From positions 249,777-313,776 of the forward strand of contig JAJPIG010000022.1 of NCBI GenBank assembly GCA_021324855.1: 64,000 bases of DNA, in the 5' to 3' direction. The stretch's first letter is position 1. The number at the start of each line of letters is the position of its first letter. The position numbers were made by a program, and so were the translations under genes. This document shows, piece by piece, positions 50,285-53,053 of the stretch. The stretch comes from Pseudomonadota bacterium. Its GTDB lineage: Bacteria; Desulfobacterota; Binatia; Binatales; Binataceae. The notes beneath the pieces were generated by a model. The model worked only from the letters and a program-made list of their open reading frames with translations, did no database searches and was not told where the DNA came from.

Positions 50285-53053
50285 CTAGCCCATGACGTGA
50301 GGGCGAGCACGTGCGCCGGTCGTCAAACTCATCCGACGCAATACTCGCTCGTCTCCCTGACCCAGCATCGATTCGATGCCGCCCCGCCTAAACGCGGCAT
50401 CGCGGGCCTCTCGAATTCCGCCGCTACCCAGCATTTGAAGGATGCGTTCGTCGTCCATGCTTACAGAGCCTGGCAAAGCATAACCCGCCAACGTGACGAC
50501 CAGGACTTGCGCATTGCCGTTCGCCGGAGTCGCAGTGATCACGAATGCGACACTCTCGCCTTCATAGATGTGTTTCTTCGACGGTTTGAAGGTCAACAGG
50601 TAGGTGCAGCTCGAATTGCCTTTTACCTTTCGCGATGTCTCGCAACTGCCGCCGGATACAAGGAAATCTTTTTTGTTGCCGTTTATCTTTTCGTACGACA
50701 GCCTGAACGAAATCGTCGGGTTGGGGTTGGTGACTGTAAGCGTCTCCTTAAGCTTTTCTCCAACTACGACGTCTCCGAACGCCAGTGTTCCTTCGGGGGT
50801 GGTGCTCAGCGCTTGTGTAGGAGCGGCGGTCGGCGTCGGTTCAGCGTAACCCGCGAGGATCACGGAAAGCGTTTGCGGGTTAGCCTGGATGTCGGGCTTC
50901 GCGGTGATCAGCAAAGTCGTGTTTTCACCTTGCCCCGCATGCTTCGGAGAAGGCGCGTAGGTCAGAAGGTAGTTACATTGCGAATTGCCGCCTACTCCCG
51001 ACGTTACGCAACTTCCGCCCGACACCTTAAAGGCCTTCACGTTGCCGCCCTTCTTTTGGGTCGCGAACGTGAATCCGACCTGATTCGGATTAATTACGTT
51101 TAGCGTCTGTTGATTCGTTTGGCCGACCTGCGTCGCCGGAAATGCGACCGTTCCCGCAGGATTGGTGTACAACCATTCGAGCGTCGGTTGAGCCGACGGG
51201 GTGGGGCTCGCTGTGACCGTCACGGTTGGCGTCGCTGTGATGGTCGGCGTTGCGGTCGCCGTCAAAGTAGGAGTGGCGGTAGCGGTCGGCGTAGCGCTCG
51301 CGGTCGCCGATGTGGTTGGAGATGCCGTCGGGGTCGCGGTCGGCGACCCGGAACCCGAGGGGCAGAAATCGATATTGTAGGAGACTCCGACTGTCGCACC
51401 GGCAGTTGGCTGACATCCGGCGATGCCGGCGCCGTCATCGTAGGCGTAACTGTAGGCGGTCGGACATCCGTTGTGAAAGATCTGGTAATAGTCCTCGACA
51501 GTGTGGGAATTGGTATCGCTGATCGGCGCGGTTTCCCAATTGTAGTTGTGCGCCAGGCAGCCTGATGACCAGGATGGGCACCCGCAGGTGATGCCGGTCT
51601 CTTCGTCGGTGCCCGTCAACCAACTCGGATAAATGTTCGCGTTCAACGGCGACAGGTTGTAGAAGTTCTGGCAACCGTAAAGGTCATTCCATGTCGCTGA
51701 GGGCCCGCTGGTCTGGGTGCAACTGCCGCCGCTGCAACTAAAGCCTTGAGGGCAGTCGGTGTCTTGCGTGCAGACGCATTGGCCCTGATTGCAGGTCATC
51801 GTCTGCTGTGCCGGATTCTGATGCCCGTAAGGACAATCCGCCGCTGAGCTGCAAAGGAACGGGACAGCCGCTGTGCAGTTGAGCGCGGCAGGCGGACTTG
51901 ATTGAGAGCAAGCCTTGTTGGGGGTGTAACAGCCGACAACATTATTGTTACTGTCCAGGAACTGCAGCTCAGTCGGGCAGTTGGCATTGATATCGAACGA
52001 GCATCCTACACCCGGATAGCCGCACTGGCCGGAATAAGTGCCAGGCACCGGCTGCATCGAGTAGCCGACGTTAAATCCGCTCACCATGCTGACGTCGTAG
52101 CTGTCCTGATTGTCGGGATCGCTCGGCGCGAGCAACGTCATCTCGGTCAAGGTCGCGGGCGGGGGCGGACCGGTCGTACATTCGATGTCTGTGCCGCAAC
52201 CGCCGGTGCTGCAATTCAATTGACCATTTGACAACGTGCATCCCGTGCGGCCCCAGAAGTTGCCGCTCCAGGTGATGGTGTTCGCGCATACGCATCCGGT
52301 TTCATTAGGCAGGCAAAAATTGCCGGACAGGTTCGGAATCGATGGGTCCGCGTTTTTGCTGATACAAGCGTAGCTCTGGCAATCGGAATTTTGAGTGCAG
52401 CTCGCATTCGGCGCCGCTCCGCTGGTCGGAGCCGCTTCCGGAATGCAGATTACCGACTGTCCGCCGTTGGCGGCGAGGTCCCATCCCGATCCTGAAGCGG
52501 GCGTGGGCGTACTGATTGGAGTCGGCTCGTAGTAATTCGCAAAGCACTCGTAGATCGCGGTCGGAGTTGCCGATGGCAAAGCTTTCTGTTGGAAACCGCC
52601 ATCGACGCAGGTCTGATTCGGCCCGCAGTCGGGAGCATTCACCGTACCAGGGTCGTTGCAACTCGTTACGCAAACTCCAGCGTTGTTGCAGGTCGTCCCG
52701 GCGGGACAGCCGAAATTGTCATTCTTGGAGTTCGTCGGGTCCGGGCATTGGGGAGTGCCGCCGGGCGCGGCCGAGGGATCCTCCGCGAACCAAACGTCGT
52801 AGCTGCAATGATTGGTCATGTTGAGCGCGCGATAACCGGCCGGACAGGCGCTGCCGGCGTTGCCGATGCGCGCGCCGCGAGCGAGCGTGAACTGCCGCGT
52901 CGCTAGCGATCGTTTCCCGCCACCGACACCGTTCAGCATCGCGGCGCTTTCCGACGAGTTCGCCGGCGCGACCTGCGTCCCCAGACTGGCGCAGAATATA
53001 ACCGCCACCAGGGTGAGTGGTGCTATGAGCGCAAGGATTTTTTGCCAGTGCAC
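50285..53053 (-). CDS. Secreted thaumatin-like protein with Cys-rich insertions, T/P linker and two Ig-like repeats
   Basis: Exported protein of 922 residues. After a signal peptide come a thaumatin-like start (NMTNHCSYDVWF, about 78-89), a Cys-rich insertion of some 170 residues, and then the core: WSGNFWGRTGC, the signature CSTGGCGTDIEC (281-292), DSYDVSMVSGFNVGY, NANCPTELQF and CPTAYSYAYDD to about 566. A second Cys-rich insertion sits near 396-450. A Thr/Pro/Ala linker (567-624) leads to two similar beta domains (about 626-750 and 755-875), each with GGSC and YLLTF/YLLTYAPS blocks. GTG start, GGGGGAA upstream. Thaumatin folds are rare in bacteria; role unknown, cell-surface binding or glucan contact is inferred. 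Confidence 0.82.
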   Translation of the reverse strand: MHWQKILALIAPLTLVAVIFCASLGTQVAPANSSESAAMLNGVGGGKRSLATRQFTLARGARIGNAGSACPAGYRALNMTNHCSYDVWFAEDPSAAPGGTPQCPDPTNSKNDNFGCPAGTTCNNAGVCVTSCNDPGTVNAPDCGPNQTCVDGGFQQKALPSATPTAIYECFANYYEPTPISTPTPASGSGWDLAANGGQSVICIPEAAPTSGAAPNASCTQNSDCQSYACISKNADPSIPNLSGNFCLPNETGCVCANTITWSGNFWGRTGCTLSNGQLNCSTGGCGTDIECTTGPPPPATLTEMTLLAPSDPDNQDSYDVSMVSGFNVGYSMQPVPGTYSGQCGYPGVGCSFDINANCPTELQFLDSNNNVVGCYTPNKACSQSSPPAALNCTAAVPFLCSSAADCPYGHQNPAQQTMTCNQGQCVCTQDTDCPQGFSCSGGSCTQTSGPSATWNDLYGCQNFYNLSPLNANIYPSWLTGTDEETGITCGCPSWSSGCLAHNYNWETAPISDTNSHTVEDYYQIFHNGCPTAYSYAYDDGAGIAGCQPTAGATVGVSYNIDFCPSGSGSPTATPTASPTTSATASATPTATATPTLTATATPTITATPTVTVTASPTPSAQPTLEWLYTNPAGTVAFPATQVGQTNQQTLNVINPNQVGFTFATQKKGGNVKAFKVSGGSCVTSGVGGNSQCNYLLTYAPSPKHAGQGENTTLLITAKPDIQANPQTLSVILAGYAEPTPTAAPTQALSTTPEGTLAFGDVVVGEKLKETLTVTNPNPTISFRLSYEKINGNKKDFLVSGGSCETSRKVKGNSSCTYLLTFKPSKKHIYEGESVAFVITATPANGNAQVLVVTLAGYALPGSVSMDDERILQMLGSGGIREARDAAFRRGGIESMLGQGDERVLRRMSLTTGARARPHVMG
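51182..51355 (-). repeat. Degenerate coding repeat, Thr/Pro/Ala linker
   Basis: The stretch encodes residues 567-624 of the thaumatin-like protein, built from imperfect PTATPT-type units of six to eight residues. It is a low-complexity linker, likely extended and possibly glycosylated. Unit number may vary between strains because the DNA repeat is nearly tandem. Confidence 0.8.

What the first reader, a model, noticed from the sequence alone, without database searches (positions are those of the whole stretch)
50285..53053. Bacterial thaumatin-like protein with inserted Cys-rich modules and an Ig-like tail
Thaumatin-fold proteins are mainly from plants, fungi and animals. Here the fold is split by two Cys-rich insertions with C-x-x-x-x-D-C-x-x-G-type units and then joined by a repetitive T/P linker to two beta domains. 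The signature CSTGGCGTDIEC has Gly where Asp is usual. This architecture is new to me and suggests an extracellular binding or antifungal/glucan-active protein.
Basis: partly seen in the sequence, partly recalled or inferred. Interest (0 to 1): 0.62.

Follow-up and report, generated by a model that had tools for sequence, protein, structure and literature searches.

The report
Bacterial thaumatin protein with cysteine-rich inserts
A soil bacterium of the uncultured group Binatia makes an exported relative of the plant thaumatin (PR-5) proteins whose loops have been filled with extra cysteine-rich pieces and which ends in a stalk and two Ig-like domains; it is a new variant of a known protein family, most likely a sugar-binding protein, not an unknown kind of system.

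Summary
Three other Binataceae genomes carry the same design, and 26 of 148 genomes of the class carry thaumatin proteins, with 8-Cys pieces in different loops in different subfamilies. Bacterial thaumatins are already known (Legionella LegT, Streptomyces), so this is a new variant of a known kind. Two of five REDDD cleft residues are changed, which weakens the antifungal/glucanase reading; a secreted or surface-displayed glycan-binding protein is my best guess (0.47), untested. Structure prediction failed (pLDDT 35).

In passing, the window holds something more striking: an NHL-propeller gene (44721-46874) with an in-frame UGA conserved in 23 copies, two Cys-for-UGA paralogues, covarying downstream hairpins, and tRNA-Sec plus SelB in the genome: very probably an unrecognised, expanded selenoprotein family.

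The parts
50285..53053 (-). whole ORF, 922 aa, GTG start, stop included
   Evidence: ribosome-binding-like GAGGGGG upstream
52961..53053 (-). signal peptide (residues 1-31; MHWQK then hydrophobic stretch; no lipobox)
   Evidence: read from sequence; cleavage site inferred
52778..52846 (-). thaumatin core, first strands (residues 70-92, ...NHCSYDVWFAED)
   Evidence: profile A4 vs 3zs3; phmmer vs 1z3q
52484..52777 (-). insert 1 in loop 1 of domain I (residues 93-190, 8 Cys)
   Evidence: 85-101 aa with 8-10 Cys here, in orthologues and in one other subfamily; 11-20 aa with 0 Cys in the rest
52439..52483 (-). thaumatin core strand WDLAANGGQSVICIP (residues 191-205)
52274..52438 (-). insert 2 in loop 2 of domain I (residues 206-260, 6 Cys)
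51929..52273 (-). thaumatin core (residues 261-375): N265, R269, CSTGGC, E304, D320, S325
51500..51928 (-). enlarged, Cys-rich domain II (residues 376-518, 14 Cys)
51716..51778 (-). best Cys-rich repeat unit (residues 426-446), like TIGR04201
   Evidence: 15.1 bits, E 0.019, below the cut-off of 25
51359..51499 (-). thaumatin core, C-terminal part (residues 519-565, CPTAYSYAYDD...FCP)
51182..51358 (-). Thr/Pro/Ala-rich stalk (residues 566-624)
50843..51181 (-). first Ig-like ASH/choice-of-anchor-D domain (residues 625-737)
50477..50809 (-). second Ig-like ASH/choice-of-anchor-D domain (residues 749-859)
50288..50476 (-). 63-residue charged C-terminal tail, no membrane segment or sorting motif recognised
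50243..50274 (.). 15-bp perfect inverted repeat between convergent genes, terminator-like
   Evidence: read from sequence

Best explanation
It is an exported, disulfide-stapled thaumatin-family protein of Binataceae that most likely works as a polysaccharide (glycan) binding protein. Shown by sequence: signal peptide; thaumatin core; three Cys-rich segments embedded in it; T/P stalk; two Ig-like domains. Inferred: it is exported by Sec, its 46 mature Cys are paired by the DsbA-type oxidases of the genome, the thaumatin head is held away from the cell or from a partner by the stalk and Ig-like tail, and the Cys-rich loops enlarge and reshape the rim of the thaumatin cleft so that ligand choice differs from that of plant PR-5 proteins.
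For: PF00314 and PDB hits. Same design in Candidatus Binatus soli (L083), FK5.bin86 (L082) and Centralia_MAG_89 (L084); these four form a supported clade (96/89). Inserts occupy different loops in other subfamilies while the core stays. Other subfamilies of the class put a lipobox and the same kind of T/P stalk in front of the thaumatin head (G317, G319, G323, G329, G347), pointing to surface display. Even Cys number (46) after the signal, likewise 66 and 44 in two orthologues, 42 plus one Cys in the tail in the third; eight DSBA-family matches in the genome. Several eukaryotic thaumatin-fold proteins bind or cut beta-1,3-glucan (PMC3048497, PMC13251364). Cys-rich repeats of type TIGR04201 accompany a lectin-like head in myxobacterial TraA (PMC3325183).
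Against: No ligand, localisation or expression data. Two of five REDDD residues are replaced (N265, S325), so the standard glucan-cleft argument does not carry over. The TIGR04201 match of this protein is below its cut-off. No anchor found at the C-terminus. No carbohydrate genes adjacent. Both AlphaFold2 runs were too poor to use.
Confidence: 0.47

Rival explanations
1. It is a structural protein of the cell envelope or extracellular matrix with no specific soluble ligand: the disulfide-rich head and stalk give toughness, as in Cys-rich coat proteins.
For: Very high Cys content, repetitive T/P stalk and a tail cassette that is reused in unrelated large secreted proteins of the same genome.
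Against: The thaumatin core and three of the five cleft residues are kept across the class while the loops change, which is more like a binding scaffold.
Confidence: 0.22
2. It is a classical thaumatin-like antifungal or endo-beta-1,3-glucanase, used against soil fungi or to feed on them.
For: E304, D320 and D539 of REDDD are kept; of 26 characterised eukaryotic thaumatins 21 are antifungal and nine are glucanases (PMC3048497).
Against: R to N and D to S at the other two cleft positions in this protein and its nearest orthologue; the Asp102 place is replaced in 25 of 32 class members. No fungus-linked genes nearby.
Confidence: 0.15
3. It inhibits foreign secreted hydrolases (proteases, xylanases, amylases), as small wheat thaumatins do, the Cys-rich loops being the inhibitory surfaces.
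For: Wheat TL-XI is a thaumatin-fold xylanase inhibitor and appears among the PDB profile hits; Cys-rich loops are common in inhibitors (own knowledge).
Against: No specific similarity of the inserts to any inhibitor family in Pfam or NCBIfam.
Confidence: 0.1
4. It is a secreted effector that enters other cells, like Legionella LegT.
For: The NCBIfam LegT model matches other thaumatins of this class with E down to 6e-34.
Against: The window protein itself shows no LegT match; it has a Sec signal, many Cys and a stalk, unlike a type IV effector; no secretion-system genes were seen beside it.
Confidence: 0.03

Closest known systems
Plant PR-5 / thaumatin-like proteins (PF00314; cherry Pru av 2, PDB 2AHN; apple 3ZS3)
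   Same: Collinear thaumatin core; 13 of the 16 canonical Cys positions can be lined up; Glu84, Asp97 and Asp185 equivalents kept
   Different: 922 instead of about 220 aa; two Cys-rich inserts in domain I, domain II insert of 143 aa, R to N and D102 to S in the cleft, stalk and Ig-like tail
Legionella LegT (NF045527), Dot/Icm effector with thaumatin domain
   Same: Bacterial thaumatin with an enlarged C-terminal half; other Binatia subfamilies match its model
   Different: The window protein does not match the model; Sec signal, different N- and C-terminal parts
Ordinary bacterial thaumatins (Streptomyces sp. NBC_01176 WP_331728241.1, Comamonas endophytica WP_231043898.1)
   Same: Thaumatin core; the Streptomyces one also has CxTGGC
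   Different: 265 and 323 aa, no Cys-rich inserts in domain I, no stalk or Ig-like tail
Myxobacterial TraA Cys-rich repeats (TIGR04201)
   Same: Similar C-x4-D-C repeat type together with a putative glycan-binding head on an exported protein (PMC3325183; four class members match, best 3.8e-5)
   Different: In TraA the repeats follow a PA14 head, five of them in tandem; here single units lie inside the thaumatin fold, and this protein's match is below the cut-off
Fungal SUN-domain proteins (ScSun4)
   Same: Thaumatin fold modified by an extra part and lacking REDDD, yet binding beta-1,3-glucan (PMC13251364)
   Different: The extra part is an N-terminal sushi-like domain; no sequence match was found here

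Membership tests
Thaumatin family (PF00314) | Profile score above the gathering cut-off | tested here: met
   95.1 vs 27.4 bits, E 6e-27
Thaumatin family (PF00314) | Core in the right order from first strands to the C-terminal FCP | tested here: met
   (N-terminal strands only weakly, 11 bits with the class profile)
Thaumatin family (PF00314) | 16 conserved Cys / 8 disulfides | tested here: inconclusive
   13 line up with plant proteins; the other three fall in the rebuilt domain II; pairing not testable
Thaumatin family (PF00314) | Asp in the C-x-T-[GA]-D-C signature | tested here: not met
   Gly285; also Gly in a Streptomyces member, so not strictly defining
Antifungal / cleft-bearing thaumatin-like proteins | REDDD acidic cleft residues | tested here: not met
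   N265-E304-D320-S325-D539: three of five kept. Position of the Arg is from own knowledge; Glu84, Asp97, Asp102, Asp185 from PMC4360817
Antifungal / cleft-bearing thaumatin-like proteins | Beta-1,3-glucan binding or hydrolysis, antifungal action | not testable with these tools
   needs protein
LegT (NF045527) | NCBIfam equivalog model | tested here: not met
   no match of the window protein at E up to 5 for its thaumatin part
ASH (PF15780) / choice-of-anchor D (NF012200) | Profile score above cut-off | tested here: met
   ASH 31.7 vs 27 bits; NF012200 44 vs 45, just under
Myxobacterial Cys-rich repeat (TIGR04201) | Profile score above 25 bits | tested here: not met
   15.1 bits, E 0.019

The most novel reading that the evidence does not exclude
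In Binatia the thaumatin fold serves as a recognition scaffold: 8-Cys pieces have been placed in at least three different loops (loop 1, loop 2, loop 3) and in domain II of one conserved core, giving a family of surface lectins with varied binding faces, shown on lipid-anchored or Ig-tailed Thr/Pro stalks.
Probability: 0.3. Interest if true: 0.58.

Novelty: new variant of a known kind. Interest (0 to 1): 0.4.

Why it matters
It shows that a domain usually described from plants has diversified strongly in an uncultured soil phylum, with Cys-rich pieces placed inside the fold at different loops. If it binds glycans, it would be one of few handles on how Binatota interact with fungi, plants or each other, and a natural example of loop-grafting on a very stable, disulfide-rich scaffold.

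Tried and rejected
Structure prediction: two AlphaFold2 runs on the window protein with the three permitted orthologues gave mean pLDDT 35 and 34, so no fold search was run; the fold claim rests on sequence profiles. A nine-row alignment was too divergent for a contig scan; a four-row one found three orthologues. Viral contigs and phages: no relatives. Plasmids: only ordinary thaumatins, no near-identical DNA. Mobile or phage origin: no tRNA, Rfam or plasmid sign; GC 0.59 against 0.55-0.67 elsewhere in the window. Operon with the neighbours: rejected, the gene stands alone on the minus strand between plus-strand genes. I did not fetch the LegT protein; only the public model was used. Chance origin of the Cys units: rejected by shuffling. 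Cys parity as a general sign of full pairing: not used beyond the orthologues, since some lipoprotein members have odd counts.

Full report
What is there. The ORF window:50285-53053(-) codes for 922 aa from a GTG with GAGGGGG placed 8 nt upstream. It begins with a signal peptide (MHWQKILALIAPLTLVAVIFCASLG...), without a lipobox. Pfam finds Thaumatin at 6e-27 (95.1 bits, cut-off 27.4) and ASH at 1.7e-7; NCBIfam finds two choice-of-anchor-D stretches at 44 bits, one bit under the cut-off. Against the PDB the best hit is cherry thaumatin-like protein 2AHN at 8.4e-22, in two collinear stretches, residues 244-386 and 520-565. A 28-member class profile reaches solved thaumatin-like proteins at 1e-41 and also lines up the N-terminal strands, weakly.

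Layout of the inserts. Measured between conserved anchors, loop 1 is 100 aa with 8 Cys in this protein, 85-101 aa with 8-10 Cys in its three orthologues and in one other subfamily, but 11-20 aa with no Cys in the remaining class members. Loop 2 is 72 aa with 7 Cys here (6 of them in the insert), 17-18 aa with 0-1 Cys in the plainest members. Loop 3 is 8 aa here but 72-85 aa with 8 Cys in the G317/G319/G323/G347/G264/G121 group. From the Asp97 place to the CPxAY strand there are 210 aa with 18 Cys here (124-484 aa in the class). So the Cys-rich pieces are inside the fold, and different subfamilies carry them in different loops. On a tree of the core segments the window protein, Candidatus Binatus soli, FK5.bin86 and Centralia_MAG_89 form a supported clade (96/89), and both the loop-1 and the loop-3 state need two changes; separate gains are likely but losses are not excluded. 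The C-x4-D-C motif occurs three times in residues 70-565 against 0.19 in shuffles (p 0.00065), and in nearly all class members. The best named relative of the unit is TIGR04201, the repeat described from the myxobacterial receptor TraA (PMC3325183); this protein matches it only at 15 bits, four class members match with a best E of 3.8e-5. Pfam's DUF7107 and EB modules match one or two members weakly.

The cleft. In the alignments to 2AHN, 7P20, 3ZS3 and 1Z3Q the Glu84 and Asp97 equivalents are E304 and D320, the last Asp is D539, but the Asp102 place is S325 and the first Arg of the GRxWxRT strand is N265. Osmotin's acidic cleft residues are Glu84, Asp97, Asp102 and Asp185 (PMC4360817); the Arg position is from my own knowledge. 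Across 32 class members the Asp102 place is Ser, Asn or Ala in 25.

Tail and anchoring. After the thaumatin part come a Thr/Pro stalk, two Ig-like ASH/choice-of-anchor-D domains and a 63-residue charged tail with no recognised anchor. The stalk-plus-Ig cassette is reused in other large exported proteins of this genome and in a loop-3 type thaumatin of the genus Binatus, G264, so it shuffles independently of the head. Other members (G317, G319, G323, G329, G347) carry a lipobox and the stalk in front of the head instead. One orthologue, L084, ends in a hydrophobic segment that weakly matches a putative C-terminal anchor model. These facts favour display outside the cell.

Distribution and origin. 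PF00314 is over its cut-off in 26 of 148 genomes of the class, 21 of them among the 41 genomes of the window's own family, and in 8 of 297 genomes drawn from the phylum. Bacterial thaumatins are known: Legionella LegT (PMC2824747, PMC4256840) and plasmid-borne Streptomyces and Comamonas genes annotated as such. The LegT model matches the G340/G345/G392a/G326d/G329 subfamily of Binatia (down to 6e-34) but not this protein. No neighbour is clearly shared between this gene and its orthologues; in another subfamily (G313, G315, G326) an NHL-propeller lipoprotein gene lies directly upstream of the thaumatin gene, and in G329, G336 and G337 the thaumatin gene lies beside the ATP synthase genes.

How it probably works. 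Shown: export signal, fold family, embedded Cys-rich loops, stalk and Ig-like tail; 46 Cys after the signal, an even number, as in two of the three orthologues (the third has one extra Cys in its tail); eight DSBA-family matches in the genome, no VKOR. Inferred: the head binds a polysaccharide, the loops set the specificity, the stalk and tail present it. I give about 0.47 to this, 0.22 to a purely structural role, 0.15 to a classical antifungal or glucanase role, 0.1 to an inhibitor role. Structure prediction did not help.

Novelty. A member of the thaumatin family by profile that fails the REDDD test; a new variant of a known kind. Interest moderate.

A stronger observation made in passing. 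The NHL-propeller gene at 44721-46874(+) is cut by an in-frame TGA at 45987-45989, yet the reading frame and the propeller repeats continue. Homologues in this genome (C10), in G329 (two), in G335 and about 18 copies in G317 have TGA at this same residue...LLVPN-(TGA)-VSDPRIAAFARxASG.... Two G317 paralogues have TGC (Cys) there and read straight through (L125, L126). Downstream of the TGA lie two hairpins; RNAalifold predicts exactly these on its own. On 22 UGA copies 96.3% of cells pair, 11 cells change on both sides (3.1 in shuffles, 0/500), and sliding the partners by 1-3 columns drops pairing to 35-60%. The two Cys copies keep only 59% of the pairs. The genome has tRNA-Sec with anticodon UCA (71.7 bits) and SelB (369.6 bits, cut-off 242); its relatives have SelB as well. 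UGA/Cys alternation, a covarying element lost in the Cys forms, and the Sec machinery together make selenocysteine by far the likeliest reading.

Noticed in passing
window 44721-46874 (+), TGA at 45987-45989; copies in L112, L114-L124, L127-L137: Probable new selenoprotein family: exported NHL beta-propeller with an in-frame UGA at one conserved residue in 23 copies from four Binataceae genomes (about 18 in one genome, G317), two Cys-for-UGA paralogues (L125, L126), two covarying hairpins just downstream that decay in the Cys forms, and tRNA-Sec (UCA) plus SelB in the genome. I would rate this above the assigned finding (interest about 0.7).
   Followed up: yes
L083:8000-9900 (Candidatus Binatus soli thaumatin): A 19-22 aa module CTGxxxPYxCCTGxGxGxC occurs about five times (some copies partial) at different places inside this one protein, also inside its other Cys-rich inserts; the CCTGxGxGxC pattern is found 21 times in the class against 5 for the reversed control. 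May be a small spreading coding repeat.
   Followed up: partly
L061, L059, L065: An NHL-propeller lipoprotein gene lies directly upstream, same strand, of a loop-2 type thaumatin gene in three genomes (G313, G315, G326): a conserved gene pair.
   Followed up: partly
L057, L058, L079: Thaumatin genes of two different subfamilies sit next to the ATP synthase genes in G329, G336 and G337.
   Followed up: no
L002, L003, L004 (own genome): The Thr/Pro stalk plus tandem choice-of-anchor-D tail is a cassette reused in unrelated large exported proteins of this genome.
   Followed up: partly
L064, L066, L068, L077, L079: Binatia thaumatins of one subfamily match the model of the Legionella effector LegT over its thaumatin part (E down to 6e-34), suggesting that LegT's thaumatin part belongs to a wider family of environmental bacteria.
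   Followed up: partly
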